Origin: Dryococelus australis
Taxonomy: Eukaryota; Arthropoda; Insecta; Phasmatodea; Phasmatidae
DNA: 64,000 nt
Assembly (NCBI GenBank): GCA_029891345.1
Contig: CM056993.1
Span: forward strand, 278,396,016 to 278,460,015
Reading direction: 5' to 3'
Both the position numbers and the translations under genes were made by a program. The notes beneath the pieces were generated by a model that searched no databases, had not been told where the DNA came from, and saw only the letters and a list, made by a program, of their open reading frames with translations. This document shows, piece after piece, positions 7,543-59,040 of the stretch; positions within the stretch are counted from its first letter, which is position 1; every line of letters starts with the position of its first letter.

Positions 7543-7917
7543 ATGGAAGGAATGATGTCTTTGCTGTGTCGCTTCTGCGATAAAGAATTTACAGATTTAT
7601 GGAACTTACGACGTCACGAAAGAACGACCTGCAAGATGAACAGTTCGACTGTTAGTTTTGAATGTGAATTCTGCCAGAAGCAGTTGTCTCGGGTTAATGT
7701 TTTAAAGAGACACTATAAAAGCTGCAGCTGTGGTTCTCCATATCCACACCCACATCTACATCCACATCCACACCTACATCCACATCCACACCTACATCCA
7801 CATCCACATCCACGTCCATCTCCACAATCTGGTACAAAATCTGCTCCTCAGTTACCTCCAAATATTATATATGTTAATTCAGGGATGAAAAGTAATCCGA
7901 TGCCCCAGCTTCAGTGA
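7543..7917 (+). CDS. Two-finger C2H2/C2HC-type zinc-finger protein of virus-like element
   Basis: An intact 124-residue frame. Residues 9-30 form a first finger (CRFCDKEF, then HERTTC) and residues 40-61 a second (CEFCQKQL, then HYKSC). In each the last ligand is Cys rather than His. From residue 66 a His-Pro-rich tract (HPHLHPHP repeats) is encoded by a DNA minisatellite. The same two-finger layout occurs in the minus-strand gene at 12.7-12.86 kb, which continues into a DUF8207-like C-terminus. Here that C-terminus is absent, so the ORF may be truncated. The role is probably nucleic-acid binding. With no stops or frameshifts it is the best preserved viral-element ORF in the window, but at this length that could be chance survival. 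Confidence 0.6.
   Translation: MEGMMSLLCRFCDKEFTDLWNLRRHERTTCKMNSSTVSFECEFCQKQLSRVNVLKRHYKSCSCGSPYPHPHLHPHPHLHPHPHLHPHPHPRPSPQSGTKSAPQLPPNIIYVNSGMKSNPMPQLQ
7737..7830. repeat. 12-bp minisatellite inside zinc-finger ORF
   Basis: Repeated CCACATCCACAC/CCACATCTACAT units encode the HPHL/HPHP tract. Because the period is a multiple of three, copy-number change keeps the frame. Confidence 0.85.
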
Positions 7918-17275: not shown

Positions 17276-18010
17276 TTTTTTTTTCACTCTACGATAGGAG
17301 CCTGTATTGAACTTTGCTAAAGACTTTTCTCTAATAAGATGATAGAATCACAACTGAAAGTCCTATACGTACTCGCAGCACTACGAGGTCATTGTACGCT
17401 AGTTCCGAGCCTTGCACGAAGCGGCGATGGCGCTCTTGTAGTGCGTGCCAGTGTAACCCGTATAGCTTCCGCGCTACTAGGAAAAAAAAAAAAAACGATG
17501 CAGGCAGGCGGGACCCTAGGCGCTGCCTACCAACTCTGCAGCAATTTTATGATAACCGTTTCTGACAGAAAGTGTTCTACGTGGAATTTCTTCATGAATT
17601 CTGGCATGTCAAGAATTATTGCGAAATTTAATATTTTTTATAGCATTTATCATAAGAATTCTACAAAAAATGAATAAATATTCATTTTTAAAATATTTTA
17701 AAGTGGCACTATTTTTCAGGCAATTGTGTTGAATGATTTATTGTTTGAAACGGATATCATTTAAATTCTCGCACTGACTCTCCATTTAAATTTAGTGGCT
17801 TTACGGTTGGTAGCATCCCTTACAAGTACAGAGTAGTTCACTTCTATTTCAAAACAGCCTCATACCGCGAACTTCTACCGCACACGCCAGGAATATGCCG
17901 TCACTTGCCAGCAACAAGACGATATGCCATTAGCTTAGCTAGCGCATGGCATATAACTTACTCGCCAGCCAGCAGCCCAGGCAATAAGGGAACTTCCGGA
18001 ATACGTGGTA

Positions 18011-18797
18011 AAGGTTGTTCACGATCACGTGAACATTTTGACATCAACCTTTAAAAAAAGTCACTACTTGCATATATTTTAACGGGCGCCCTGAGTGACA
18101 TGCGCCCGGTAAAGTTGGTAACGATGGAGGGAAAGTAGTTCCACATCTTAATGTTGAATTAAGAGTGTTAGGTAACCATTTGTGGCAGCTTAAATTATTT
18201 CTTTCGGTTTCTGTATATTTAATGCATGTAGGTGTAAAAATTGCGAAATTTGTAAAATGTTTACTTTTCTGATAATTTTACTGTTCTGTTTGTCTGACGC
18301 ATGAATGAAGTGATAAGGTCCATGGCAATATCAATTTTACATACCACATTTTCGAAAATTCAACGGCGCATCCACCGATGTACACCTGACTTTCGAAAAT
18401 TAATCGTTTGGTGAGTCCGGTTGAACCAGTGAAATCTGGTCTGAAAATCTGTTGGATATGGTGGATATACACCAAAACATCAACCGATGGATTTTTCGAA
18501 CGCTTTCTCTGAAAAATAAAAGTTAACACAAATACAACTCGTAATTTTCAAGCATTCAATAATATATTTTTAATGTAATTGTATTAATATGTGTTTGTAA
18601 GCAGATGAAAATACCACTAAAAATCAATCTGATGTTCGAAAAATACCTCTATCGGTGTACACCGGTGTATCAACCACTGGTGGATCTATTGATGAATTTT
18701 TGAATACGCGGATAGGCCGGAAAAATACACAACGTGGATACAAGTAGATCTTAAGCAGGGCTTTCAAAAGTGCTCACTTTACCGTGAACGGCCTATA
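18011..18797 (+). mobile_element. MITE M1 copy a (interrupted by M3)
   Basis: Ends AGGTTGTTCACGATCACGTG and CACTTTACCGTGAACGGCCT are inverted repeats of the M1 terminus. The interior is collinear with copies b and c (GTTAGGTAACCATTTGTG, ACGCATGAATGAAGTGA). Coding capacity is nil, so movement would depend on a transposase supplied elsewhere. Confidence 0.8.
18344..18714 (+). mobile_element. MITE M3, nested in M1 copy a
   Basis: This 371-bp block is absent from M1 copies b and c at the same place (after TTTTACATA). It has imperfect inverted ends: TTTTCGAAAATTCAACG against the reverse complement of TGATGAATTTTTGAATAC. Subterminal words TCGAAAA, CACCGATG and TACACC recur in both orientations. 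ATA flanks both sides and may be the target duplication. It is the only copy recognised here. Confidence 0.6.
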
Positions 18798-19599
18798 GCA
18801 AGTCGGACACAATACCAGTTCCCAGGGCCTCGCACAGCCAATCAGCACTGAGAGAAATGTTTCTTCCAACCAGCTAAATATTTGTTTTTATAGGGACAAA
18901 ATTATATTTAGTTGCCACAATAAAATATGATGCTGAGTAAACAAAACTTGACAAACAACAAAATTAATTTTCATCATCTTACAAAATACACGCTTGAATG
19001 AACAAAACCTCTTTGTTGGACTAAAAGAAATTAGACTGTCAACCAAATATTTTGTTGAATCAACTGTATATATTTGTTTGGCCACTCATTTGATTCACTG
19101 TAAAAAAAATCTTCTGGTAAAATTCCTAAATTGTAATTGAAGATTTTAGCCTATAAGCTGTATTGGAATAATACTACATATCAGACTGAAAATTTTGTAG
19201 GAATGTTGTGTGTCGTTACTATACAAGGCTGGGGACTTCCCTACGTGTTTGACTGTTTCGTGAGAGAATGTAGGAACGCTACCATGAATGTATCAGGAAA
19301 TAGTTTACCATTCGAATTTTATCACTATTCGCATACATTGATGTAATTTTACGAATAATTTCTTCGAGCGTTGCCTTCGATCGAAAATACAGCTCGAGAG
19401 TTTGTTCGCATTTTTGTGACTATTAGGATAGTAAAAGTGTTTCGTAATGCATTTTCTGATGCTTAATAACGGTACAAACATCATAATAAAACAAGTTCAA
19501 CATCAAAATAAAAAATAAGACTGTGAAACATGAAATATTTATTTGCGCACGTTGTTCAGTATTCGAAGTTTATGTACAGATATTCTGACTTTATCAGTA

Positions 19600-20023
19600 C
19601 AGGCTGTTCACGATAAAGTGAGCACTTTTGAAATCAACCTTAGAAAAAATGTCACTGCTCCTCTCTCCATATACATTAACGGGCGCACTAAGTGACAATC
19701 ACCCAGTAAAGCTAGTAACGATGGGAAGAATTAGTTCCCTATATTAAAGCCGAATAAAAAGTATTAGGTAACGATTTGTGATCAATTTAATTGTTTCTTT
19801 CGCTTTGTGTTTAATTGAATGCATCGAAGTGTAAAAATTTGCAGATTTGTGAAATGTTTACTTTTCTCATAATTTCACAGTTTAGTTTGACCGACGCATG
19901 AATAAAGTGACGAGACTCATGGCAATGTTAATTTTACATAAGGTGGAAGAGTACACAACATTCATACAAGTAGATCTTAAACAGGGCTTTCAAAAGTGCT
20001 CATTTTACCACGAAAAGCCTATA
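19600..20023 (+). mobile_element. MITE M1 copy b (complete)
   Basis: 424 bp with inverted ends CAGGCTGTTCACGATAAAGT and AAGTGCTCATTTTACCACG...CCTATA. The interior matches copies a, c and d throughout. TA-like dinucleotides flank several copies, suggesting a TA target. No coding sequence. Confidence 0.85.
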
Positions 20024-20029
20024 GTCACA

Positions 20030-20130
20030 TTAGCTGAGGTTGCTAGAGGGTAGCGTCCAGACCTAGTGCTCGGCCGGAAACAATCTACTGTAGGTACGAA
20101 CCTCGGTTGGACCTATTATTTTTTATAGCC
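20030..20130 (+). mobile_element. Possible tRNA-derived SINE head
   Basis: TAGAGGGTAGCGTCCAGACC resembles a pol III A box, and GGTACGAACCTC 60-70 bp downstream resembles a B box. Not matched to another copy in the window, so this is tentative. Confidence 0.3.
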
Positions 20131-20429
20131 GAAACTGTTTAATGTACATAGAGACGAACAAATATTTAGTCGCGCCAACCAAATATTTGTCTGGGGTAAC
20201 CAAGTAAGATAACGATTTAATTTCGTTTCAACAACAAAATATCTCATCGCCCCTATACAAAAAAAAATGATTTCGTTGTCCCAAACGAACTTTGTTTGAT
20301 TCAACAAAACCTTTTCCACAGAGAGCGAATGGGTACGCCTGCATTAAAGGAACAGCAACGCTCTTTCACTTCTATATACTTACCTATTCTGTGGCACCGA
20401 GCTGGAACGGAGATGTTTGCGCGGGTTCT

Positions 20430-20663
20430 TAATATCGGGGTCTTGAGAGCCGATGAGGATTAAGCGAGGTGATTATTGAGCAGCGCCTGAATGAAGGGGC
20501 GGGGGAACGGGATATCCTCGAGAAAACCCGTCGACCGACTAGAGACGTCGTCCGGGCCGATTCTCACGTGCAAAAACCTCGGGAACGACCGGCGCCGGGA
20601 ATCGAGGTCTGTTCGCTTTGGGGGGAGGCGAGCGCTCTGGCCGCTGCGCCACCGCGGCCCCTA
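20430..20663 (-). mobile_element. tRNA-derived SINE-1, near full length
   Basis: On the minus strand it begins with a tRNA-like head: GGTGGCGCAGCGGCCAGAGC (A box region) and the B box GATTCCCGGC. The body follows, and the 3' block reads CTCATCGGCTCTCAAGACCC. The same head, body and tail are seen at 27210-27443, with tails only at 8075 and 31840. Non-coding, and dependent on a LINE for movement. The open frames across it are compositional. Confidence 0.8.
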
Positions 20664-20735
20664 TGCGCCGAGCTGGAACTGGGAGCCTAGCGTTTCGAAG
20701 CCCGTTATAATGCGAAGGTCCCAGTGTGCGACTTG

Positions 20736-21160
20736 TATAGGCTGTTCACGGTAAAATGATCACTTTTGAAAGCCCTGCTTAGGATCTACTTGTATACACG
20801 TTGTGTATTTTTCCTGCCTTATGTGAAATTAACATTGCCACGGGCCTTATCACTTTATTCATGCGTCGGTCAAATGAAACTGAAATTGTTGATAAAGTAA
20901 ATATTGCACAAATCTGATCATTTTTACACGTCGATGCATTAGAAAACACAGAAAGCGAGAGAAATAATTTAAGTTATTACAAATGGTTACCTAACACTTT
21001 CTGTTCAACGTTAATATATGGAACTACTTCCCCCTACATCATTACCAACTTTACTGGGCGAATGTCATTCATTGCGCCCATTAAATATATTCAGGTAGGG
21101 GCAGTGACTTTTTTCTAAGGTTCATTTGTAAAGTGCTCAATTTATAGTGAACAGCCTTTA
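20736..21160 (-). mobile_element. MITE M1 copy c
   Basis: Reverse orientation relative to a and b. Starts TATAGGCTGTTCACGG and ends GTGAACAGCCTTTA. The interior is collinear with copy b. Confidence 0.85.
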
Positions 21161-21194
21161 CCAAAGGATAACACATCGAAATACATTGGGTTGG

Positions 21195-21197
<3 letters not shown>

Positions 21198-21226
<29 letters not shown>

Positions 21227-21453
21227 TAAGAGGGGGAGCCTAGATACGCTGTTGTCAACAAATATTTTAAACACAAAAGTAATCACACGAGGAATTAAAC
21301 CAAACTATGTTTACAAATGAACGAATCAAATTAAACAGAACTAATAATCAAATGAAAGAAAAAAATACAGGTAGTATATGAAGAAACGTGAAATATATCT
21401 TGAACACCACGACGAAATTAAAAAAAAAAAAAAACACACACACACACAACACA
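21198..21453. repeat. Microsatellites: (TG)n(G)n and (A)n(CA)n
   Basis: (GT) then a run of about 15 G at 21198-21227, and A-run plus CA repeat at 21418-21453. The sequence between them is A-rich and without a gene. Confidence 0.8.
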
Positions 21454-21794
21454 CAAACAAAACTGGGCGAAACCCCGACGACAGCGTTGAAGAATCCAGA
21501 GTCTGTCAGTTGATTCTCGAACCATCGCTATTGGTTTGCTAAGAAATCTCTCCTCTTCTCTGATTTTTTCTGTGTTTCGTTCAGTTTTGCTCGTATATAT
21601 CTGTTTGTGCCTAAGTATTCGTCTGTGCTTTCTTCGTCGCGTCGTCTCAGACGTTTAGTATATATCCTTAATATATAATCTTCATTGTTTGTTTACTAGT
21701 ACTGTATCTTTGTCTCGTTTACGTGTACGAAAAATGAACTTAATTTTTATTTTGTTTTTAGTATGACTTTATACGTCACATTATGCAGTTCAAT

Positions 21795-22075
21795 AACTTA
21801 ACGTCAAATAAAAAATGTTAGGTAACCATTTGTGATAACTTAAATTATTTATTTCGCTTTCTGTTTTCTTTAATGCATCAAAGTGTAAAAATGAGCAGAT
21901 TGGTAAATATTTACATTCCTAATAATTTCACAGTTTCACTTAACCAACGCACGAATAAAATGATGAAGCCCGGGGTAATGTTAATTTTACACAAGGTGGA
22001 GGAATATACAACTTGCATACAAGTAGATCTCAACCAGGGCTTTTAAAAGTACTCATTTTGCTGTGAACAGCTTAC
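21795..22075 (+). mobile_element. MITE M1 copy d, left end missing
   Basis: Collinear with the right two thirds of copy b from GTTAGGTAACCATTTGTG to the terminus GCTGTGAACAGCTTA. The left terminus is absent. Confidence 0.75.
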
Positions 22076-31986: not shown

Positions 31987-34111
31987 ATGGAATCTTGTTC
32001 ACTACAAGTAAACTACATTCGCATGTCACTTGTTTTAAACAATAAATTGTCTGATACTTAACGTCGATATTATTGGAGTTTTACTAACGCACAAAAGTTT
32101 AATGCATTTTTAAAGTCCTTTAGTGTACACAAACAGCTGTGGGGAAATATCGATTACTAGACTTCCAGTAACTTAAAAAACCAAGGGAGAAATAGATTTA
32201 TTTTCTTATGTGTGAAACACAGTTTGTTTGTATATCTTGTCATCAGATAGGTATTACATTGCAAATATTTTGAAGTTACAGTCGTGTTGGACCAAGCATT
32301 AGAATTTTATAAGCAAAAAGTTTTTCCTTATAAGAAAAGTTTTAGGTGGAAATTGTAATGTAATATCTTATACGAATTATTTGCGTGGATAGATTTTTTG
32401 CAAAACATACATTGACTGTTACAAACTAACTTGAAAGTATATAATGTCAAAATTGGCGCTATTTGATAAAGCTTATGAACTGCAACAAAGTGATGGAAAA
32501 GCATTTGAGCAACATTTACGTGAATGGAACATGTCCTAGGGGTATAAATTTGTGTTATTTTGAATATATTTAATAAAGTATTTTAGTAACCATGAATTTT
32601 GATAATTACAAAAATATTTTCTCTATTGTTATAAATACCGGGGAAAGGTTAGTGTTTGCAAAACTGAATTGAAATTAAATACTGCAAATATTTGCATCAT
32701 TGAAAGCACTGAAAATGTTAATATCTTTCCTATATTTTACCAGAAAAAATATTAAACTTATAGATATAAATATATATTTATAAGTATCATTTACAATTTT
32801 TTCCCCATCACTTTAATACAGCTGCGATAAATTGTCTGCTGTATGGCGGGCTAGAAGCTAAATCGCCAATACATTGACGAATTTTCTGTATTTAATACTG
32901 AAGAAAATGTATTTTAATCGGTTCGCATTGATGTGTTATGTTCAGGAACGAAGGAAACGATTGCCATGCTCAAGCCAATTGCATTTCCATGTAGCTGCCA
33001 TATGTATATCATACCAAACAATTTTATTTTTGTGTTAAGAAGCGTGTAAAACAGAGGGACTATGTTTATTATCTGAGTATAGACATAATAAACATCAACA
33101 ACAGTAGTAGGGAAATGTTCCTTGACGCGCAAGGGCGTGGGGCGTAGGGGCACAGGAGCCGGCCTCCGCCATGTTGTTACGTCACCCGTCCACTATCTTT
33201 GACCCATATGACATTGACCGTGACATTTGACCCGTGACCGTGATCTTGACCCCGGTGTCCTCTAACCTCACAACCTCAAAAAATTGCAAAAAAAAAAATT
33301 CTTTAAAAATTATTTGAAAAATGTAATACAACATTTTTTTAATGAAATCGTTAAAGAAATTTATAACAAATTATTACTAAGAAATTATAAAAATTAAAAA
33401 AAAAATATTTTGAAAATATTAAAAAGTTATTTCAATTATTTTCAAATTTTAGTCTCCCGGTAGTTATTTTTCCTAACAATTTCCCTTTTTCCCTTAACAT
33501 TTCCCTTGTTTCGAATAAAATTTCCCTTTTCTGCTTAAAAAAATTCCGAAAAATCTATAAAAACTTATGTAAGAATTTATTTAAAAGAAAGAACTTACAT
33601 TTCCGAAGGTTCTCCCAGCACCACGTCCAGCAGACGACAGACTCCCTCACCCCCACTCCCCCCCCCCCAAATATACTCATTCTAACGTATAACACCATTT
33701 TTTTTTCGTACATAATTTATTTACACATGTTACTAGAGGTGGCCATATTTGTTTTTGCTGTTCGTCATTTGTTTATATATGTTACTGGATGCAGTCATAT
33801 TGCTAAGTGCAGTTCTTTATGCTTGTTTTTTACTGTCATTTGTTTTAGAGTTTATGTCTTACCTTCGTTCGGTTACCATATTAGATTTCATATATTTACA
33901 TCAACTATGTACGATCAAGTGACAGCGATATTTATTTATGTGTTTAAAGTATAGGTTGAGCTGATTACCCCCGCCAATGTTTTTCATTGGCTAATTAGTG
34001 TTTAGTCGACAAGCCTCCTCCACTTTCGTTCCATCAATTACTCACTTTAGTTTGACTCCCTCCATGTTAAATTATATATTTTCAACACATAGGTAGTATC
34101 AATTATGCCGC
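31987..34111. other. No gene recognised; TGACC-rich patch
   Basis: Mostly AT-rich. 33165-33270 contains about eight TGACC/TTGACC words in one orientation within 100 bp (GACCCGTGACCGTGATCTTG region), then poly-A-rich DNA. 33440-33540 has repeats of TTTCCCTT. It is probably a repeat terminus. Confidence 0.45.
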
Positions 34112-34409
34112 CTGCTATCGGCCTGTACCAAATGGTGACATTGGCCATTCCTGCAAAGTACTTAAACCGACATATTTATTATTTTTATTCTTATATATAA
34201 AGCGGAGAGGTTTTTGGAATAAAACACAGCATATCATTTTACATAAAATTTGTTGTACACATAATAAAATACACAAGTTTATTCACTGCTCGATGTCCGC
34301 CTCGGCGACTCAAGAATCGAAGCGGGCAGGGAAACCCCACCACTTGAAGTCGCCCTTCCGTTAAGTCGTTTAGACACCTTCTCAAACCTTGAAGCTGGCG
34401 ATGCTCGAA
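34112..34409 (+). repeat. Left terminal inverted repeat of 6.1-kb element
   Basis: Pairs with 39889-40198. Landmarks shared in reverse complement include CTGTACCAAATGGTGACATT, CATTCCTGCAAAGTACTTAA, AATAAAACACAGCAT and CGATGTCCGCCTCGGCGAC. Divergence is moderate, with many substitutions and a few indels. Confidence 0.85.
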
Positions 34410-34449
34410 GACGACCAAACATTTATAGTGTGTGAAAAGTCAACTGCGC

Positions 34450-35642
34450 TCACAACAGTATTTTGACGGTCTTGTCTCTGCTATTGTAAGATACAAGCCG
34501 GCCATGAAATATCAGGCAGTTCGTGTATGTGTTGGCAGGAATATTTTTATGTGTAGTGAATTCGATCCTGCAGTCGATCAAGTTGGAGGTAATACTCACA
34601 TCGAATACCATGAGCGGGGACAAACTCTTGAACGTATCAGGGCTCAATATCGGGGATTGGGTGCGCCCATAATATGCAGTTTGGGAATGAGCGTACATCT
34701 AATATGCCAGCAGGTGCTGTCCATCTACAAAGTTCATGTTCATTTCAACGCACTGGTAGCTTTCACTATTCAAATATATTTTGACATTTTCTATTTGACA
34801 TGTGTCGAACTGCAAACGGCTCACTCTTACATTGTGTTGTGTTTTGGCCTGTAGCCCAACAATGATGTACCTCAATTTCTCAGAAGCAAAGCTGGACTTC
34901 ACCATCCAGTTGATATAATAATCTGGGGTATGTCACCAGACACCATGGCCTGAAAGCCACACATATGTTTTTACCATCTTCCACATTCTGCAACATTTGT
35001 ATGTGTTCTGCAGTGCTCAACTGCATATGAGGCAGCATCCATTCGATGGACTGTAGTTTCAGTCCCACTGTTTCCAGATTTTCTCCAATACCCACTATGG
35101 TATCCACATGTGTATTGGCGAGAATTATTACCAGCTGCTGCTTCGAATCGAAGGTAATTAGTTTGTAGTCTTCTGCAAATCCAAATAGCATGGAGAACGG
35201 AATACGTATTTCGAACCTGCCTTCGGCATAAATGGGAACACTGTAGCCATCTTCGAATTCCCAGCCGGCCATCTTGACTGCAGACAGCTCACTCAGCATG
35301 AGTGAAGCGTAATTTTTGATCGTTCAGGTTATGCCCACATTTCGTGACTGGTTCACCTCGGCACCATTGAGAACATAGGCAATGCGATCGATCAGGTGAA
35401 GAATTCCATTGTTTGTTATTTTTGTGGATGCTGGATTGGATCCATCTTCTTTCATCAGTCCCCCTGATTCGCAGGAAACACTGGCAAGGAAGAGTGTAGA
35501 TATCTTGATGTTGGACCGCTATCTGAAATTCCGATGGTATTGTGTATGAACCGATCAGGAACGGCTGGTACACATGAAGTTCCACCTTTGTTATGCTATC
35601 TTCGATAATGGCTGGCTCTTCTTAGTTTAGGAAATCTTCCAT
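34450..35642 (-). pseudogene. Major capsid-like protein (probable double jelly-roll)
   Basis: A ~397-codon region from ATG at 35642 to a stop at 34450, matching in length and motif order a capsid-like family widespread in arthropod genomes beside packaging ATPases. Recognisable strings in order: VLNGAEVNQSRNVGIT near residues 85-100, GFAEDYKLITF near 160, WMLPHMQLS near 205, and YLNSESYQC with FPANTYTNC-like ANTYTNCLIFHGRL toward the end. Breaks: a stop after MEDFLN, a frameshift near 35460, a stop near 35315, and frame changes near 34900 and 34700. The double jelly-roll fold is inferred from the virus group, not visible directly. The gene ends 40 bp inside the left terminal repeat. Confidence 0.65.
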
Positions 35643-35772
35643 GGAGATTGACCTCGTAGCCGAGACTGCAGAGGATAATCTCGCTAGCACATTAACTTCT
35701 TGGAGACCGATGATGTACTGATTGTAGATTTTGCACGATACGTTATTTTATAGTTTCTGATCGATGTAAGTA

Positions 35773-36418
35773 TTATTCCCATCTTCTCAAATGCAGGCAT
35801 AGTGTAATTTCTTCGTTTCGAATGTTCACCAACTCTCCATGCTGGTCGACTACTGTCACGAGCTCCTCGTGCGTTTTCTTCGTGACGACTGGAACGAAAT
35901 TATGCTTAGTGGTGCCACAACCAGTTTATATTCTGGAGGGACCATAGGTAAAAATTCATGCAGCGTATTGCTCGGACCGCCATTGAGGTACGCACTGCTC
36001 GCCAAATTGCAGGTTATTCGTATCACATTGAATGGCAAAATGTTTACTGGCTACGACGACACGTGTGTTTTTCCACCTTCTTAGATATGTGTCTCGAACC
36101 CCAGCATCTGTAGAGTATTGGGATTCAAACATTGTTCGAATTCTGTGTCGGGGGACAGTGAATCTTGAATTTACCTTGCCATGTCGTCTATTACATAAGA
36201 GCCAACAGGCTGTGAAATTTCATGGGAAACATTACCACATTTTACGAGGTACAGCACGCAGTTTTTTTTTTTTTTCATAAATGTTCGGTATCGCATTGTA
36301 GGTTTGAAAATTAACAAGGCCTATGCTCCATTCCTCCTCCAGGTCGAATGGCAAAAAATGTACCGCACGCAGCTCGGAGCTCGGAGCTACGACTCGTCAA
36401 GGTAAGTGTTATCGACAT
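35773..36418 (-). pseudogene. Minor structural (penton-like) protein
   Basis: About 215 codons. The N-terminal part contains FLPFDLEEEWSIGLVNFQTY followed by NAIPNI. The C-terminal part contains GGPSNTLHEFLPMVPPEYKL and ends ITLCLHLRR before TAA at 35773. Both blocks match a small structural protein that regularly neighbours the capsid gene in related arthropod elements. A penton-like role is inferred from order and size. A poly-A tract near 36260 (Lys run), a stop near 36235 and frame changes near 36000 and 35900 break it. The proposed start at 36418 overlaps the end of the protease frame by about 30 bp. A local GAGCTCGGAGCT duplication near 36375 makes the start uncertain. Confidence 0.55.
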
Positions 36419-36800
36419 GACTTATAGTTTCCTCATGGTGTATAGTCTTTTTATACACTAATTTGTAGGGGTGAACCTGGAAGTGAATGTAAAAATTTCC
36501 GCAGTCCTGCATGTTAGGCAGCTGTTCCGTTTCGTAGTTGTACATACATTAGTTAACAATTTTCCAGTACTCACACTGTTCGGGCGGAGGACGCAAATTC
36601 CTAAAACTATCATAGTAGTCTGCGTGTTTAAGCTCTTTTATGTAAACTACCCATTGCATGCCAGGCCCGGCTATCTAATTCTTCTCTCCTGGGTTTGGCG
36701 GGCAAACCATCTCTCATAAATACTCCTTTTTGAATTGTATGCAAACAGTTCCAAATCCAAATTTGTGACCGCTCATTTCGGTAGAGATCTCATTATTGCC
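36387..36800 (-). pseudogene. Adenain-like (C5/Ulp1-type) cysteine protease
   Basis: Motif order of adenovirus-type maturation proteases is visible: GVFMRDGLP near the start, AGPGMQWVVY at the catalytic-His block, YYDSF at the Asp/Asn block, and NMQDCG with the presumed Gln and nucleophilic Cys. The expected His is Gln here (GMQWV instead of a HWV-type motif), so even an unbroken copy would be inactive. A frameshift near 36700 and stops near 36690 and 36560 also disrupt it. In adenoviruses and Polintons this enzyme cleaves capsid precursors during maturation. It lies between the PLA2-like and minor structural genes, as expected for a morphogenesis cluster. Confidence 0.6.
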
Positions 36801-36825
36801 TCTTCCTGCTGCGACACTTTTGAAC

Positions 36826-37517
36826 ACTTCCACCTCCTACTGGGCATGGTCTTAGGTACAGACATTGGCCATTTATTCTACCCATGGCTATAGCTTATAT
36901 ATTTGCATTGTATATTTCTGCCTCAGTTAACTGCTTCCATTCATTCGATGCTGTGTCGATGGCTCGGACGATACCACTCGTGGCTCCGATTAGGTCTCGG
37001 AGGGTCCTGAGTGCAGGCAAAAGCAATGGAAAAATCCACCGGTAGATATTTTCTTAGCCTTGCAGATTTTTCTTTCTTCTGTAACTGCTTTTCTTTTCAC
37101 TAGTGCCTTTCTTTTGCTCTAATCACCCATGCCCATTTTCACTTTGACGTTCATCAAGTTGGAAACCTCCCACTCTGCAATTTTTTCTCTGAGCCCAGTG
37201 TCTGATAAATTTCTTATTTCGTTCACCTTCTGTGCAAGTATCTTTTATGCCCGGTGTCTGGCTTGCAGATCCTTGTGCTGTGAATAGGCGATGTCGTGCT
37301 GCTTGCATGCCTCGTCCAGGGTATTTATGCTGTCTCATTGCATGATGCATATCTCGTCCAGGGCGTTTATGCCCGCCTCGTTGCATGACAGCCATTTAGC
37401 TAGCTTTGTTCCTGGCCCACAGAACATGTAACTGGCAATGTGCAGCTCGAATGGTGGATTGTTGATCAGCTTATTGATGACCCTGCTTCATGTTACTGCC
37501 TTACCTCTTCGAGACAT
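36826..37517 (-). pseudogene. PLA2-like domain plus hydrophobic membrane-active protein
   Basis: From ATG at 37517 one frame runs about 130 codons with in-frame stops. It contains FCGPGTKLAKW (calcium-loop-like GPGT) and DEACKQHDIAYS with the His-Asp pair of phospholipase A2, the same domain type found in parvovirus VP1 N-termini. A local duplication of about 48 bp repeats the block before the His-Asp helix (NALDEICIMQ then NTLDEACKQH). The first copy has lost the His-Asp and carries a stop. Downstream, in a shifted frame, FPLLLPALRTLRDLIGATSG forms a hydrophobic helix and LYLRP a C-terminal motif, recalling membrane-lytic minor proteins such as adenovirus pVI. The likely role is endosome escape during entry. 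Confidence 0.6.
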
Positions 37518-37803
37518 CGTGGTGAACTTAGCGAGAAAAGTATAAATATGACCCTCTTATTCATTTTCGTTTCAGTATCATTCTATACTTGACATTCTAT
37601 ACAGACATATCGCATACTCCAATATGGTATTTCAGTGCAAATTCTGCTAGAAGCTATTTCATTGGCACGATGCTTCAAAGAGACATTCTAAAACTTGCAG
37701 CATTAAGTTTTCCACCACCACCGCTACCACCACCGCCATCACCACCACCACCACCTTCCCTGCTCCAGAAGATTGCAGTGGTAACACACTTATTATCAAG
37801 TAA
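37518..37803. promoter_or_regulatory. Divergent intergenic region
   Basis: 286 bp between the first minus-strand and first plus-strand genes, so it should hold both promoters. TATAAATA occurs near 37540 on the plus strand. A (CCA)n-rich tract at 37711-37763 is a local expansion. The open frame across it (37589-37816) looks like a by-product. Confidence 0.35.
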
Positions 37804-38487
37804 GATGATATTCTAACCATACGCATTCATGCTGAAGATGAAGATATCCTTCACGAATCATGGCATGGAAGCCTATTTCCGAATACAGCGAGGTGCATCA
37901 TCGCAGGACCATCAAATTGAGGGAAAACATGCGTCCTACTGAGCCTGCTGGAAGAAGAGAATGGCATTCATTTCCAGAACGTGTACCTAAATTTAAAATC
38001 GCTTCAGTAACCGAAATACCGGCGATCGGCATGAGTACTGCAGGCCATGGAAGGCATGGGTTATTTCCCCTGCAGCGATAATGAAGCAGTCGTACCTCCG
38101 AACGAAGCACTGCAAAATTCGATTTTTGTCTTTGATGTTATTACCTGTGAGAAACAATCTTGTATTCAAGAATACTTTAGCATGGGACGGCACGTGAACG
38201 TGGACTGCGTGTACCTTGTCTAGACTTATTCGCGCATACTCAAACAGATCTTTCGCGACAACGCAAACATGTTGGTGCTGTTTCGCATGGACGACACGAA
38301 TTTGCGGCACGTTTATGACGATCACGTAAATAAGAAAATTACGCTATCATATTTAAAAGATATGTGTGCCTTGTACTGGAAAGAGAAATACGGATTTTTG
38401 ACGACTGCAAAGGACTGCCCCCTATATAATGGAAGGTACAGGGGCAGTTCAATCAGTTCATCGCCGGTCGTCGAGAATGATTTATAG
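37804..38487 (+). pseudogene. A32-type packaging ATPase
   Basis: One frame of about 228 codons holds a complete ATPase core interrupted by four in-frame stops and no frameshift. Walker A is IIAGPSN, stop (TGA at 37918-37920), GKT. Walker B is NSIFVFD near 38120. It is followed by SMGRHVNVDCVYLV, stop (TAG), TYSRI, a sensor-like block. The C-terminal part reads FRMDDTNLRHVYDDHV and GFLTTAKD before the stop at 38485. This is the FtsK/HerA-superfamily ATPase that pumps DNA into capsids of Polintons, virophages and large DNA viruses. The start is unclear: the frame opens after TAA at 37801. The stop pattern (TAG and TAA at likely Gln codons) suggests ordinary mutational decay. Confidence 0.7.
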
Positions 38488-39209
38488 CATATCAAAATTC
38501 GGGCAGAGTAGCATCAAGCTGCGTCCTCACAAAGACAATGATGGAGGTTGTCTCGTACCAGGAAACGATAGAACTTATGATGCTGGTAGAGAATAATTTG
38601 AAACATTGGCAAACCCGAACTATCCGGTGATGCTGCTACTAAACATTTTGTCTTCGAAACTGGTAATGACATTATCTCGGAACTGCACATCATACTGGCA
38701 GAACGATTAGCATTCTTTCGAAACGACCTGTCCGAGCTCGGGGTGAAGATGGAGCATGTAAAAAAAAAAAAAATAGTCCGTGATATCGTGGCCATGGACG
38801 AGCATGTGACGAGTGTTCAAAGGCAAATTATCAACAGATTGAATGTATAATCTGCACAAAATGAAAAGAACCTGAATAACTGGGAAGGGTACGCGACACA
38901 TGCCTACATTCAATACCTAGATTTCCCACCTCACCACGAAAACCGATATACAAAATTACAGTAGGGACATACTGAATGTGCAGCGAATGTCTGCGCAAGA
39001 TCGAAAATATTTTGTTAGAGACTCATGACTAAACCTATAAAAAAGAGCAATGGGGAGAATTTTTATTCAATATGATGCCGGACATTGACTGCGAACGACA
39101 TCGGGCGATTCAGTCTGTCCATTCAAGAATATTCGCTCGCCAAGAGAGCCAAAATTTCCCGTCACCATAATAAATTAAGAAATTTTTAACCCCCTAACTC
39201 ATCGTCACT
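38488..39209 (+). pseudogene. Unrecognised gene region of 6.1-kb element
   Basis: Short collinear open stretches in changing frames: DAATKHFVFETGNDIISELH then LAERLAFFRNDLSELGVKM near 38620-38760, DEHVTSVQRQIINRLNV near 38797-38848, and NMMPDIDCERHRAIQSVHSR near 39070-39130. An A run at 38760-38773 adds a frameshift. The heptad-like spacing in the first part suggests a coiled coil. I do not recognise the family. It may be a separate gene or the N-terminal part of the DUF8207-like protein. Confidence 0.4.
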
Positions 39210-40060
39210 CGTAGCTGTGAAGTCCAAAATCGTCAATACCGCTAAACCTTTGAAGAAGCGAAATATGATGAAGTACAGTCAGATCAAAATGATGGATCGA
39301 ATGAGGATTTGGTACATAGGAAGAAATCCTTGAAATCTTAATGCTTTGGCTCGACAGTACCTACGATCGTACACATCTTGTAATAATACTGATAGGACAT
39401 ACGTGTTTACAGGCATAATGATAAATTGTTCCTTGGTGCTGATGAAATAGAGTTTCTAGTAGGTGGGAACATCCGAGTTAGCAATTACACGATATGTGGA
39501 ACCCCTGGGCTATACGAACTTCTATTTCGCAAGGAGCCCAGGGGGTTTACAGAATCCAACCTGCTGGACTACAAGACTTTGCTCGAACTCACGCACGTAC
39601 TTTACCAAGATAGCGAATATAAGACAGGTGTTTATAAGGACGAAGGTTACTAAGAAATCGACATTCTCGCAGACCTCTTCCGCGGCCTAGCACTGAAAAG
39701 TGGCGAAGGTCTGAAGAAGATAGACGATGGCAAGAATATTGACTACCTATCCTGGGACAACCCGAACAGGCTAGTCGATAAGCTTTAGCTACTGTTTGCT
39801 TCGTAAAGGGTTGGAAATTACTCCCACACCAATGAGATAGATTCAACCATCGAAGAACTTGAGGCGGGCTACATAAGAAGAGTCGATTGGACATCGCCAA
39901 CTTCAAGGTTCGAGAAGGTGCGAAATGATGTAATGGAAGGGCGTACTTCACGTGCTGGGGTTTCCCTACCTGCTTCAATTCCTGGGTCGCCGAGGCGGAC
40001 ATCGAGTGGTGAAGGTCGAAGAAGATTAATAAACCTGTATATTTTAATATATGTAAAATA
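39210..40060 (+). pseudogene. DUF8207-like protein gene
   Basis: Recognisable pieces: FLGADEIEFLVGGN and TPGLYELLFRKEPRG (39426-39545), then YLSWDNPNRLVDKL and NEIDSTIEELEAGYIRR (about 39745-39873), the C-terminal signature also found at 130-351 and 12.3 kb. Stops near 39652, 39786 and 39806 and frame changes break it. After the signature a Ser/Arg-rich tail (PGSPRRTSSGEGRRR) continues inside the right terminal repeat to a stop near 40060. Function is unknown. The conserved position next to capsid and ATPase genes suggests a virion or genome-handling role. Confidence 0.55.
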
Positions 40061-40198
40061 AATTTTATGTCAAATGAAATGCTGTGTTTTATTTCAAAAA
40101 CCTCCACACTTTAAATATAAGATTTAAAAAATAAATATGACAAATTAAGTACTTTGCAGGAATGCTCAATGTCACCATTTGATACAGGCCAAAAGCAG
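39889..40198 (-). repeat. Right terminal inverted repeat of 6.1-kb element
   Basis: Partner of 34112-34409. Its inner half is also the coding tail of the plus-strand DUF8207-like gene, so a copy of that coding tail sits, non-expressed, in the left repeat. Confidence 0.85.
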
Positions 40199-40288: not shown

Positions 40289-41832
40289 TGAGAAGAGTTC
40301 AGTTTGTTGATTAATTTATTACGTTAATTCTGTATAAAACCCTTTTCTAAGGGACGAAGTTGTCGGCCACTTCGCACACCAATGCTAACACTGAAGTTAC
40401 TCTGCTTGTGGGAGGCTGACCCCGTAAAAGCAATACTTTTAACAATGAAAAGTACACTGATGATTGAATCTACTTTTGGGCGCAGTGCCCGATGATACTC
40501 AGTAGAGTATAAGTCAATAAAAGTCGCCTATTCAAATAGGTGACAGTTTTATTGACTGAAGGGTACAAACAAATGCCACTGCAAAATCATGTGTACCCTG
40601 TTAATGCAGACCTGGCACTCCTGACCTGCCGGTGGTCGTAGCTGTAAAGTAATGCGAGAGCGTTAAGAATAGTTTCGTGAAGAATGCATCACTGTATGCA
40701 TGAATTCCTAGAATATTACCTCAGAATGCAAGTCAGGCCTCCCCTCAGCCAAAGAAAATGTTCTGGTAATACATTAAACTACTGTCTTGAATGATATCCG
40801 CCTAAATTGAAGTGCTGAAGAAGGAGGGGGGGGGGGGTAACGTGGAAGGTTACCACCTGTCCTGCCAGGTCGTTCGAGTGCTAAGGTTGGACAGATTTAA
40901 GATGGCAGCAACCTCGCCGAGCTGTGTGAGACTGCCACCAAATGCTAAATTCACATGATAACAATAATGAACACAGTACATAATTATTGTTATTGATTAG
41001 AAACACATTGGTGACATACCAGTGAATGTCGGAGCCTCCGGTTATGGTTGAGAATGTGACGTCACGAGTATGTTACCACACTTGAAGGGTGGTATTAAAT
41101 TAAATTATGCCTTACCTGGCTGATTCTCGATGAATGAAGACATTTGCACTCTTAAAACTAACATATGGATGTGGTAATAGTGAAATACGATGAATAACAG
41201 GATTAAGTGTTTGTAGTTCACTTCCTGTGATGTCTGGTGTATTTTACTATTTTGGGCGTGGTTTTGCCCTGTCCTTTGTGGGTTTTTGGTAACCCTCTAT
41301 AGAAAAACGGCTGACTTCCATAGTTAACTATGGTGCAATACCTGGTAAATCTCGCTGTATTGCAGCTCATTAATTTGTGCTGCTAGGGGGCTGCTCGTCA
41401 CTTTGCACTTCCTTAGGGAATATCATTCCCCACCTTTTGAACCCTCTTGGGACCACATAGCACACCAGGTTCGGCCACAAGGCCCGCCGACATCGTGTTC
41501 ATCAGAGAGATGTAGGCTAAAGCAGCACTTCTTACTCCCATGTTCCCTCCAATGGCTGTTCTGCCTAACGGTCGTGACTTCACAGGAAACACTATTTTAG
41601 GCCACATATCAATTTATTATGAGAGTTACCTCAAGTAATAAATTTAAAATATGGTGGCCGTCGCCCCACAGGCTGCACAATGGTAAGAAAAGTGTAGACA
41701 TGTCGTTCTTGTCGACCTGCACTGATCGGGACCGCGACCTAAAGTCGATCAATCGGGTGCTGCTGTTGCGGTTGATGCATCTGTGGTGGTATAAACGGGC
41801 ACAAGATATATATTGACGTCCTGAACACGTCA
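40289..41832 (-). repeat. Gypsy LTR A
   Basis: Collinear with LTR B (42628-43672): shared ACGAAG(T/C)TGTCGGCCACTTCG, GTGACGTCACGAGTATGT, TTCTTGTCGACCTGCACTGATCG and the end ACACGTCA. It starts TG and ends CA. It is ~0.5 kb longer than B because of extra sequence at about 40450-40990. That extra part contains a hairpin (CAATAAAAGTCGCCTATT with AATAGGTGACAGTTTTATTG, 40513-40556) and a G run at 40828. The right flank lacks a polypurine tract, so A is not the 3' LTR of the sequence next to it and is more likely a solo or displaced LTR. Confidence 0.7.
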
Positions 41833-41863
41833 ACGATTCAACAAGACCATTGCAGGCTGGGTT

Positions 41864-42610
41864 TTATGACGTCGGTTGTAGTTTAGTAATGTTTAAACTC
41901 TGTAATAGGTGTAAGACTAATTCATTGCTAAACGAAGTTCCTCTATCTATCAATATCTGTGCCATAAAGACATACTTTAGAATAACTTCTGTAATAAAAT
42001 TCGAGCACGTTTGCGCATCAATACTTTTGACTGGTTTAGCTATCGCATACCTACTAAAGAATTCTGTCATGACTAGGATATCCCCTATACGATTGTAGAC
42101 TGGCAAGTAAAATATTTTACCATTGTTAGGAAAAATGATAATCCTGCACTGGAGCAAAGGATCGATACATGTAACTTGTATTTTGTTTGCATTATCTTGC
42201 ATAATAATTTCCACATTGACCTGAAATGTGAGTGAAATAATTTTAGCAACAGTGTAGGCAGGAATATAGCCACCATTAAAAATACTTTTAACGAGAACTG
42301 ATTTGTCCTTTACCTGGATATCGTCTTTAATGCAGGGCTTCATCTCTCTCCATTTATTATGATGTATTTAGAAATAATTTTCTGTACTTTGGTGTCCCTG
42401 TTTTGATTCTGATACAAGTTCTCCACTATTGCCTTATATAAACTAGTACAGTGTAACATGTGACACGATGCGCCTCCAGATGTGCTGGGATGTGTTCGTG
42501 TCTTGCCTGGGAGCAGGTGGAGAACAGGAACTGGTGATGTGCCCGGCACCACTTTCGGTAAAGTGAACGATGTTGAATGGGGTTGTATGGCCGACGGACT
42601 ACGACGACTC
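41864..42610 (-). pseudogene. Gypsy integrase fragment (element G1)
   Basis: The 159-codon frame 41864-42343 contains GDILVMTEFFSRYAIAKPV, aligned to the first catalytic block (the usual Asp is Glu here: MTEFF), and ILIDRGTSFSNELVL with the second catalytic Asp (DRGTSF). The third block (Glu) is cut off by LTR A at its 3' side. Upstream, 42344-42610 holds a degraded HxxxxH-type zinc-binding region (HEHIPAHLEAH). It belongs by composition with the RT and RNase H pieces to its right. Confidence 0.65.
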
Positions 42611-42627
42611 TGTATACATGATCAATA

Positions 42628-43672
42628 TGAAGGAGAGCTAATTTAACTGTAACTGAATGTAAAATATCGCCTTTGGGACGAAGCTGTCGGCCACTTCGCA
42701 AGCCTATATTATCACTGAATTTACTCTGCTTGAGGGAGGCAGGCCCCGTAATTACAAAACATACACTGAAAACACTTTTAAGTTGATGCTGCTACAAGGG
42801 TGCAGGACCCTATGAAGTCAGGAGAGTCAATATAATAAAAAAACGTCTAATTATAGTATGACTGTGCTGACATATTCGTGAACGTCGGAGCCCCAGATAT
42901 GGCTAAGAATGTGACGTCACGAGTATGTCACCACACTTGAAGGGTGATATTAAATTAAATGATGCCTCAGGTGGCTGATTCTCTATAGATGATTACCTGT
43001 ACACTCTTATAATGAACATATTAACATCAGCGTGTGTTGTAATGGTTATATTTACAGGAATGTGTATGGATGTGACAACACACGGATTTCATCACAGGGG
43101 TAGAGTTACGCCCTGTTTTCTATGGTATGTTATCTACTCTCTATGATGGAGCGGGCGGTTCCCCTAGTTAATTATGGTGCAATCACCACTAAAATGCCAA
43201 AAAAATGATCCTATTAATTAATGTAGCTAGGGAGCTGCTCGGCACTTTACACTTCCTGTAGGAATGTGATTCCTCATCTTTTGACACTACTTGGAGCCAC
43301 GCCGCACTCTGAATTTGGCCACGGGACCCCTCGATATTACACATATTGGAAAGCTGTGGAAATATGCGACGTCGCTTATCCCAGTGTTCCCTCCAATAGT
43401 TGTTGTGTCTAACTGTCGTAACTTCATGGGACACACTAATTTAGGCAACATATCCATTCATCACGAGAGTTACCTCTTGTGATGGATGTTAAATATTATG
43501 AGTCGTGGCCACGAGTTACAGGGTGGCAAAAAAAGTGTAAATGCAGTTCTTGTCGACCTGCACTGATCGAGACAGCGACCTAATATCGATTGGTCGAGTG
43601 CTGCTGTGTGGTTAATGCATCTGCGATGGAACAAACGGGCACAATGGACATGTGGATGTCAGGAACACGTCA
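42628..43672 (-). repeat. Gypsy LTR B (3' LTR of element G2)
   Basis: About 1045 bp, TG...CA. It is directly followed on its right by a purine tract on the coding strand (GAGGGGGGTGT just inside), as expected of a 3' LTR on a minus-strand element. It shares the LTR A landmarks. Confidence 0.75.
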
Positions 43673-58252: not shown

Positions 58253-58745
58253 TTAGTTGTCTTTGCCCGTGACGTGATGCACTATGAAGTCGAAGGCCTG
58301 TAGGAACAGTGCCCAGTGCGTGAGTTTGCTACGACTTTCTCGCACAATGCGTAGCCAAACTATACTACAGATGTCCGTCAGGAGAGTGGACCTCTGATAT
58401 TCAGGTAGTTGTTGGTATCTTTTGACTCTCCAGATCACCGCTAAGCACTCCCTCTTGTTTACGTCGTAACAATGTTCTACTGCGCTGAATTTTGCACTGC
58501 TGATATCGATAATCTGTCGACGTCCGTCGTCCCCTAGTTGAAAAAGGACAGTGCCGATTACTTGCTTGCTAGCTTCTGTTTGTAAGCAGAGATGGCGGGT
58601 GGGGTCATGACATGCCATAGTTGGGCACTCACGAAAATGCTGTTTGATTTCTGAAAAGCTGTTGTCTTGTTCTTCCCACCACTGGAAATTCACGTTCGTT
58701 GACATCAGATTGATGAGGGGTATGGTTACAATGGCATAAAGGCGG
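58253..58745 (-). pseudogene. G3 RNase H domain
   Basis: A long open frame with FQWWEEQDNSFSEIKQHF, VLFQLGDDGRRQIIDISSAK, VNKRECLAVIWRVKRY and FDFIVHHVTGKDN gives the full RNase H plus connection order. It is the most intact G3 domain. The Asp of TLLTD is present. It is fused in frame with RT N-terminal residues because of the deletion described for the RT. Confidence 0.75.
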
Positions 58746-59040
58746 TCTTGTGGTGGTCTTCTCTTTGCAGGGGCACATACCAGTACTCGCCGCACAGATC
58801 TATTGTTGTTAGGACCCAAGCTCGGCCCAAACTGTTGAGAGCATCTTTAACATGCATGTACGGCAGTGGTGCATTTTGAGTGAGTTGGATTAATTTCCTG
58901 AAGTACACACAGAAATGCCAAAACCCATATTTTTTAGGCGCTAATGTTATGCCAGAATTATTTTCACTGTGGGGTGGCTCAATGATGCCATCTTGTAGCA
59001 TTTAGGATATCTGTTCCTTTATGACTTGTCACTGATGTGG
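58746..59040 (-). pseudogene. G3 reverse transcriptase, palm deleted
   Basis: Contains DGIIEPPHSENNSGITLAPK, FRKLIQLTQNAPLPYM and TTIDLCGEYWYVPL (finger and first palm motifs, with the first catalytic Asp in TTIDL). It then passes directly from HHKTAF to RNase H-proximal sequence (LYAIVTIPLINLM). About 130 residues including the catalytic YxDD motif are missing, so no RT activity is possible. Confidence 0.75.

What the first reader, a model, noticed from the sequence alone, without database searches (positions are those of the whole stretch)
34112..40198. A 6.1-kb capsid-coding element with its own terminal repeats but no polymerase
Sequence: inverted ends of ~300 bp enclose major capsid-like, minor structural, adenain-like protease, PLA2-like, A32-type ATPase and DUF8207-like genes in two divergent blocks. 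Known: Polintons and adintoviruses carry this morphogenesis set plus a protein-primed polymerase and often an integrase, and are 12-20 kb or more. Inference: this is either a minimal virus-like unit relying on replication functions in trans, or an internally deleted derivative. Because both ends flank a compact, evenly spaced gene set with no remnant of other genes, a distinct small lineage is plausible.
Basis: partly seen in the sequence, partly recalled or inferred. Interest (0 to 1): 0.9.

Follow-up and report, generated by a model that had tools for sequence, protein, structure and literature searches.

The report
Polymerase-less virus-like transposon in stick insect
The window holds one decayed copy of a common virus-like transposon of a stick insect that carries the genes for building a virus shell but no enzyme for copying its own DNA, so it probably borrowed that enzyme from relatives.

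Summary
Host: Dryococelus australis (contig-length match). Sister copies continue outward to a terminus AGTAGTAGG, window 33103; 4 of 7 tested copies have exact 6-bp target duplications, as in Polintons. The window copy lacks its right outer repeat. 'No remnant of other genes' is wrong: the inner arm encodes an integrase tail. Six of 16 fetched places carry the integrase where the window keeps only that tail; five copies, window included, share one deletion junction. A compact unit is real: the 8 capsid-integrase neighbours found among listed places lie 5.3-6.0 kb apart on opposite strands. I found no PolB in the copies examined, though PolB occurs elsewhere in the genome. Variants shared between copies show third-position bias in capsid, ATPase, protease and DUF8207-like genes; copy-specific changes do not. 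Best reading: a non-autonomous Polinton/adintovirus-like family that kept its capsid module and moved in trans. Larger elements appear to share its terminus. A helper-dependent or split virus is not excluded.

The parts
33103..34111 (+). outer part of the left terminal inverted repeat; terminus 5'-AGTAGTAGGG at 33103, preceded by AACAAC (possible target duplication, not testable because the right end is lost)
   Evidence: homology of sister copies stops here; no full mirror image right of about 40243
34450..35640 (-). double jelly-roll major capsid gene, broken into frames 34450-34698, 34702-34932, 34880-35320, 35292-35621
   Evidence: PF21738 in three pieces; a sister ORF of 415 aa is 55-58% identical over 97% of its length to Bacillus rossius and two ENA proteins; its predicted fold, pLDDT 83.2, matches viral DJR capsids. 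Upper limit is a projection.
35684..36400 (-). penton / minor capsid gene, broken (limits projected)
   Evidence: homologous family; predicted fold of homologue P0026, pLDDT 83.7, matches a MELD-virus penton and adomavirus LO5; sister ORFs projected here
36400..36800 (-). adenain-like cysteine protease gene, broken (limits approximate)
   Evidence: sister ORFs projected here; weak PF00770 and 1avp matches
36892..37437 (-). parvovirus-type phospholipase A2 gene (projected)
   Evidence: PF08398 E 6.5e-7, above cut-off, in sister ORF L017:5583-6125 that projects here
37840..38490 (+). A32-type packaging ATPase gene (limits approximate)
   Evidence: PF04665 E 9e-5, just under cut-off, in L022 at the same place; window frame 38224-38484
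   Evidence: third-position skew of the C-terminal part among copies
39902..40006 (+). remnant of a chromodomain integrase, C-terminal residues only; deletion junction at about 39885-39905
   Evidence: tblastn 60% over 35 aa, E 1e-8; junction shared with L012, L013, L018, L021

Best explanation
A fossil copy of a high-copy, non-autonomous Polinton/adintovirus-like family in Dryococelus australis. The family unit is TIR - [capsid, penton, protease, PLA2, leftward] - [ATPase, DUF8207-like, integrase, rightward] - TIR, without a DNA polymerase. Some copies, the window's among them, then lost the integrase except its tail, which lies inside the TIR. SHOWN: architecture, high copy number, termini and 6-bp target duplications, the shared deletion junction, and third-position bias in four genes among variants shared between copies. 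INFERRED: a protein-primed PolB from a larger element with the same AGTAGTAG terminus copied the linear DNA; integrase from integrase-bearing sisters or larger relatives inserted it with a 6-bp staggered cut; and the family kept its own capsid and packaging genes in use, so it may have travelled in its own particles while borrowing replication.
For: Sixteen places were fetched with the arm (20 stretches); 12 of 16 have a core collinear with the window. Exact 6-bp duplications flank 4 of 7 copies tested (L012 TATATT, L018 GAAGGG, L020 ATCGTG, L025 GTGACT); L012, L018 and L025 lack the integrase, so that form was inserted in trans. Terminus 14-mer: 707+722 exact copies against 13+13 for the reversed control. 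The 8 DJR-integrase neighbours within 50 kb, from lists of 126 and 150 places, are all 5.3-6.0 kb apart on opposite strands, leaving no room for a PolB gene between them. Integrase in 6 of 16 places at one site; one deletion junction in window, L012, L013, L018, L021. No tblastx match of the fetched PolB C-terminus (L049) in the other loci held then or the window. Codon positions 1/2/3, variants shared by two or more copies: MCP 295/211/437 (p 9e-19), ATPase 34/16/54, DUF8207-like 25/12/41, protease 61/42/84; MCP singletons 311/313/315. Trees near star-like with end branches of about 0.1: a burst.
Against: No PolB-bearing element with these termini was read, so the helper is inferred; absence of PolB rests on selected frames and one PolB query, not on a full profile scan. 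Shared variants may predate integrase loss: within integrase-less copies the skew holds for ATPase (p 4e-4), DUF8207-like (p 0.002) and protease (p 0.03) but not MCP (p 0.17), and penton, PLA2 and the integrase tail show none. Of the 32 copies in the MCP test, 19 or so were picked by protein score, which favours conserved copies. Integrase-less copies are not shown to be one clade, and the integrase group has weak support (65/95 and 48/11). Integrase-bearing L020 and L024 have a terminus that differs after AGTAGTAG, and no listed capsid place lies within 40 kb of a listed C1 terminus, so the 14-mer count need not belong to this family alone.
Confidence: 0.8

Rival explanations
1. Plain internal-deletion derivatives of a normal 15-26-kb Polinton, also moved in trans (so far as in the best reading), but with capsid genes as mere passengers; the selection signal was inherited from full-length parents.
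For: Facing exact termini 15.6, 20.9, 21.8, 25.1 and 26.4 kb apart, beside two small pairs of 4.5 and 5.8 kb; inside the 15.6-kb one a DUF8207-like gene, 61-66% aa over its last 42-47 residues in most hits, near the right end; PolB genes exist in the genome (54 matches of 91 scored); selection within integrase-less copies is only partial.
Against: The compact unit has constant capsid-integrase spacing at the 8 places where both were listed, and shared variants show third-position skew; independent deletions should give many sizes and junctions; the sampled large element is a divergent relative, not the parent.
Confidence: 0.45
2. Capsid segment of a split (multipartite) Polinton-like virus: PolB on one linear molecule, capsid plus integrase on another, both with the same termini, inserted separately.
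For: Capsid-integrase units examined contain no PolB; none of 47 PolB places has a listed capsid, integrase or C1 terminus within 50 kb; third-position skew; segmented relatives are known among bidnaviruses (PMC8363768 and PMC11071296, passages).
Against: The 2 kb at the 3' end of one PolB (L049) shows no family arm; the lists are top-scoring subsets, so the lack of neighbours is weak (about 3 expected if linked as often as capsid and integrase).
Confidence: 0.2
3. The arms are a SINE or MITE that happened to insert on both sides of unrelated DNA.
For: Many copies; the two window arms are no more alike (80.4%) than arms of different copies (80.0 and 81.3% on average); one of 16 places (L028) shows an arm with no core in the fetched stretch.
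Against: Arms are attached to the same core in 12 of 16 places, encode the integrase tail, and the star-like burst explains the equal distances.
Confidence: 0.02

Closest known systems
Polinton/Maverick transposons
   Same: 5'-AG termini, long TIRs, 6-bp target duplications, rve/chromodomain integrase (sister copies), DJR capsid, penton, A32-type ATPase, adenain-like protease (family features recalled, and PMC6431247 passages)
Adintoviridae
   Same: animal host, morphogenesis set; MCP fold matches adomavirus and MELD-virus proteins, penton fold a MELD-virus penton
   Different: Drosophila adintoviruses are 13.3-14.6 kb, the complete one with PolB and integrase (PMC8363768, passages)
Bidnaviruses / segmented bidna-like viruses (Vesanto virus)
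   Same: in the split-virus reading: several linear molecules with similar terminal repeats, PolB on some of them (PMC8363768, passages)
   Different: parvovirus-type single jelly-roll capsid, not DJR (PMC11071296, passage)
Polinton-like viruses lacking pPolB
   Same: DJR capsid set, mostly no pPolB (PMC11071308, passage)
   Different: PLVs carry other replication proteins and mostly no rve integrase; no replication protein was recognised here

Membership tests
Polinton/Maverick superfamily | 6-bp target-site duplication and 5'-AG terminal inverted repeats (recalled from Kapitonov and Jurka 2006) | tested here: met
   4 of 7 sister copies exact; untestable in the window copy, whose right end is lost
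[quoted passage not shown]
   no PolB match among the selected frames scanned; no tblastx match to the L049 PolB end in the other loci held then or the window; capsid-integrase spacing leaves no room. Not every frame was scanned.
Polinton/Maverick superfamily | rve-type integrase | tested here: inconclusive
   in 6 of 16 sister places (rve E 1.7e-6 but below cut-off); only a tail remnant in the window copy
Polinton/Maverick superfamily | DJR major capsid and penton | tested here: met
   PF21738; predicted folds
Polinton/Maverick superfamily | A32-type ATPase and adenain-type protease | tested here: inconclusive
   both hit the expected family just under cut-off or weakly
Adintoviridae | PolB phylogeny places it in alpha or beta group (recalled) | not testable with these tools
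   no PolB in the element
Parvoviridae/Bidnaviridae | single jelly-roll VP with SF3 helicase NS1 | tested here: not met
   capsid is DJR; no helicase hit among the frames scanned; only the PLA2 domain is shared
SINE/MITE | short non-coding repeat without attached core | tested here: not met
   arms carry the same core in 12 of 16 places

The most novel reading that the evidence does not exclude
A helper-dependent or multipartite Polinton virus: a long-lived lineage that evolved as a separate capsid-plus-integrase DNA molecule, under selection for particle formation, replicated by a PolB encoded on other molecules with the same termini. It would be the reverse of a virophage-style satellite: it supplies the shell and borrows the polymerase.
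Probability: 0.25. Interest if true: 0.85.

Novelty: new variant of a known kind. Interest (0 to 1): 0.6.

Why it matters
Whether Polintons are transposons or viruses is an open question. A high-copy family without polymerase whose capsid, ATPase and protease genes still show third-position-biased change suggests that making particles, not self-replication, was what selection maintained. It makes the question testable by comparing dN/dS on internal branches of PolB-less and PolB-bearing lineages in phasmid genomes. It may also account for some of the unclassified repeats of this genome (1.56 Gb; PMC10268593, passage); the family's share was not measured here.

Tried and rejected
SINE reading of the arms: rejected. 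The 17.6-kb arm pair on C5 (L009-L011) as a full-length PolB element: of the open frames of 110 aa or more in the extra 12 kb four were scanned and none hit PolB, one hit DUF7869, so it looks like a nested insertion. The 3.7-kb gap in L022 as PolB: frames up to 103 aa, no relation to other loci beyond its edge (frames not scanned by profile). Viral contig scans with the MCP profile and an integrase piece: no confirmed relative. Phage DNA search with the arm: none. PHROGs with ten sister frames: only weak matches without function. Solved-structure search with the MCP profile: none. A genome search with the large-element DUF8207-like protein, to intersect with PolB places, did not complete. No PolB protein search of the genome was made; PolB places come from the family profile alone.
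Full report
OBSERVATION. The inverted arms 34112-34350 and 39945-40198 are real (80.4% identical with gaps). The window is G000:C1:278396016-278460015 of a 3,415,067,245-base assembly. A protein of Dryococelus australis lies on a contig of 326,569,885 bases, the exact length of C17, and the published genome has 3.42 Gb and 17 major scaffolds (PMC10268593, abstract start and passages); so the host is taken to be the Lord Howe Island stick insect.

COPIES. The left arm matched at 40 scored places of 3088 first-look candidates. I fetched 20 stretches covering 16 of these places. Ten show both arms (C5 copy, L012, L013, L015, L017, L018, L020, L021, L024, L025). With L019 and L022, 12 of 16 have a core collinear with the window apart from private deletions, insertions or a local inversion (C5 has a 12-kb and L022 a 3.7-kb insert; L012, L018 and L021 have deletions); L023 and L027 show an arm with part of the capsid gene, L028 an arm only, L026 an arm with a short rearranged core. 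The DJR capsid profile gave 126 scored matches of 18,149 candidates, all over cut-off, and none in 14 control genomes. Counts are lower bounds.

TRUE ENDS. Homology goes on outside the arms to window 33103, where the sequence reads AGTAGTAGGG. Inverted self-comparison gives terminal repeats of about 1.0-1.5 kb in one piece in L012, L018, L024 and L025; in L013, L015, L017 and L020 the match is in several pieces, and in L021 only about 0.34 kb and in L022 none was found. Testing seven copies for a 6-bp duplication at AGTAGTAG-like termini gave exact matches in L012, L018, L020 and L025, total sizes 6259, 6216, 8691 and 7667 bp; L015 had a one-mismatch match with degenerate motifs, L024 and L017 none. 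In the window the mirror of 33103-34111 is missing beyond about 40243, so the window copy is right-truncated and its own duplication cannot be tested.

GENES. Minus strand: capsid (PF21738 in three stop-separated window pieces; a sister has an open 415-aa frame), penton, adenain-like protease, PLA2 (PF08398). Plus strand: A32-type ATPase, a coiled-coil and DUF8207-like gene. AlphaFold models of the sister capsid (pLDDT 83.2) and of a penton homologue, P0026 (pLDDT 83.7), match viral capsid and penton folds, with query TM-scores mostly of 0.5-0.67 among the top hits. Of 23 capsid homologues the closest are from Bacillus rossius (58% identity) and ENA contigs (50-57%); one is from the wasp Chelonus insularis (41%), the unnamed others are at 35-42%, and one Dryococelus protein matches over 12% of the length only. 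Protease and ATPase matches are below the curated cut-offs; the motif readings behind those names are by eye and recalled.

INTEGRASE. Open frames in L026 read by eye as the core end, SH3-like part and chromodomain of a Polinton-type integrase (labels recalled; Pfam gives only rve E 0.03 and Chromo E 0.1 on these frames, beside other weak matches). tblastn finds this integrase in six of 16 places, L015, L019, L020, L022, L024 and L026, between the DUF8207-like gene and the arm; pieces from L019 and L024 hit rve (E 1.7e-6) and Chromo (E 0.003), both under cut-off. The window keeps only 35 C-terminal residues at 39902-40006, and the left arm mirrors 25 of them. Six places lack the integrase with a readable junction; four of these (L012, L013, L018, L021) share the window's junction, and two (L017, L025) have a shorter one, consistent with a second deletion between two CTTCAAG repeats. 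Four places could not be scored (C5 copy, L023, L027, L028). Three integrase-less copies have exact target duplications (L012, L018, L025), so that form was inserted by integrase supplied in trans.

FIXED UNIT WITHOUT POLYMERASE. Comparing the 126 capsid places with the 150 best integrase places (of 20,167 candidates) gives 8 neighbours within 50 kb; all 8 are 5275-5974 bp apart and on opposite strands. The genome does contain PolB: 54 matches of 91 scored. None of 47 PolB places (seven second fragments of the same gene dropped) lies within 50 kb of a listed capsid, integrase or C1 terminus; with all 54 places against the capsid and arm lists the result is also zero. As these are top-scoring subsets, about three neighbours would be expected if PolB were linked as often as capsid and integrase, so this is weak evidence. 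The PolB C-terminal end in L049 has no tblastx match in the other loci held then or the window.

LARGER RELATIVES. The 14-mer AGTAGTAGGGAAAT occurs 707+722 times against 13+13 for the reversed control. Among the 100 listed places (C1, first 242 Mb) eight neighbours lie within 50 kb: seven face each other at 4.5, 5.8, 15.6, 20.9, 21.8, 25.1 and 26.4 kb, one pair (36 kb) does not. Nested insertions could inflate these sizes. Two 1-kb samples of the 15.6-kb one: near the right end a DUF8207-like gene, 61-66% identical in amino acids over its last 42-47 residues in most hits and about 30-43% before that; near the left end nothing related. The 2 kb at the 3' end of one PolB gene contains no arm. 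None of the listed C1 termini lies within 40 kb of a listed capsid place, and one lies 34 kb from a listed integrase place; integrase-bearing L020 and L024 have termini that differ after AGTAGTAG. So the 14-mer count may include other element families.

SELECTION AND AGE. Differences were counted by codon position on natural open frames, split into variants shared by at least two copies and singletons (32 copies for the capsid, 5 to 29 for the others). Shared: capsid 295/211/437 (p 9e-19), protease 61/42/84 (p 8e-4), ATPase 34/16/54 (p 3e-5), DUF8207-like 25/12/41 (p 3e-4); penton 74/65/69, PLA2 44/42/38 and integrase tail 9/6/9 are flat. Singletons are flat for all seven (p 0.33-0.99). In integrase-less copies alone: ATPase p 4e-4, DUF8207-like p 0.002, protease p 0.03, a second ATPase piece p 0.04, capsid p 0.17, PLA2 0.68, penton 0.52; in the subgroups some singleton tests are also skewed (ATPase in integrase copies p 0.03, ATPase piece in integrase-less p 0.02, capsid in the profile-selected set p 0.01). 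So several genes were under purifying selection before insertion and mostly decayed neutrally afterwards; whether this held after the loss of integrase is only partly shown. Trees of 12 and 10 copies are close to star-like with median end branches of 0.11 and 0.10; integrase copies lie on one side of a branch with weak support: most simply one burst. With recalled insect rates of 2-3.5e-9 per site per year this is of the order of 30-50 million years, a rough guess.

MECHANISM. Most likely: PolB from a larger same-terminus element copied the linear DNA from both ends, integrase in trans inserted it, and own capsid and ATPase packaged it. The first and last steps are inferred.

LITERATURE. 'Non-autonomous/nonautonomous Polinton/Maverick' and 'mini-Polinton' were found in 0 papers of the held library, 'Polinton-derived' in 3. 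Other searches listed, by title and start of abstract, nothing plainly on capsid-bearing PolB-less Polintons; passages only were seen of PMC6431247, PMC11071296, PMC11071308, PMC8363768, PMC10268593 and PMC5691397. The main adintovirus paper is not held. The Dryococelus genome paper's main text does not contain 'maverick' or 'polinton'; [quoted passage not shown]

Noticed in passing
window 41867-42343 (-) and 40356-43500: Fragment with a retroelement-type integrase core (rve E 3e-4, under cut-off), in a stretch that partly matches L027; not of the Polinton kind by eye.
   Followed up: partly
window 58256-58819 (-): Reverse-transcriptase RNase H domain (PF17917 E 6.5e-23).
   Followed up: no
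window 7543-7914 (+): C2H2 zinc-finger frame (PF00096 E 2.4e-6).
   Followed up: no
window 18009-21995: About 350-bp repeat present at four places in both orientations, also in the flank of the element copy in L002.
   Followed up: no
L026:2154-2597: In-frame fusion of the coiled-coil part of the DUF8207-like gene to the integrase core, apparently from a private deletion.
   Followed up: partly
L004 and L006 (C1:205.77 and 205.91 Mb): Two copies 94.5% identical over 3.2 kb including flanks, 134 kb apart: probably a later segmental duplication.
   Followed up: no
L009-L010 (C5:134.556-134.568 Mb): A 12-kb insert between the arm and the DUF8207-like gene carries a DUF7869 frame (E 2.7e-6): a large unidentified insertion.
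   Followed up: partly
outer terminal repeats, e.g. L024:8484-8765: Short tandem repeats whose frames read like repeated YMLLEAAIF units; seen in several copies, number not compared.
   Followed up: no
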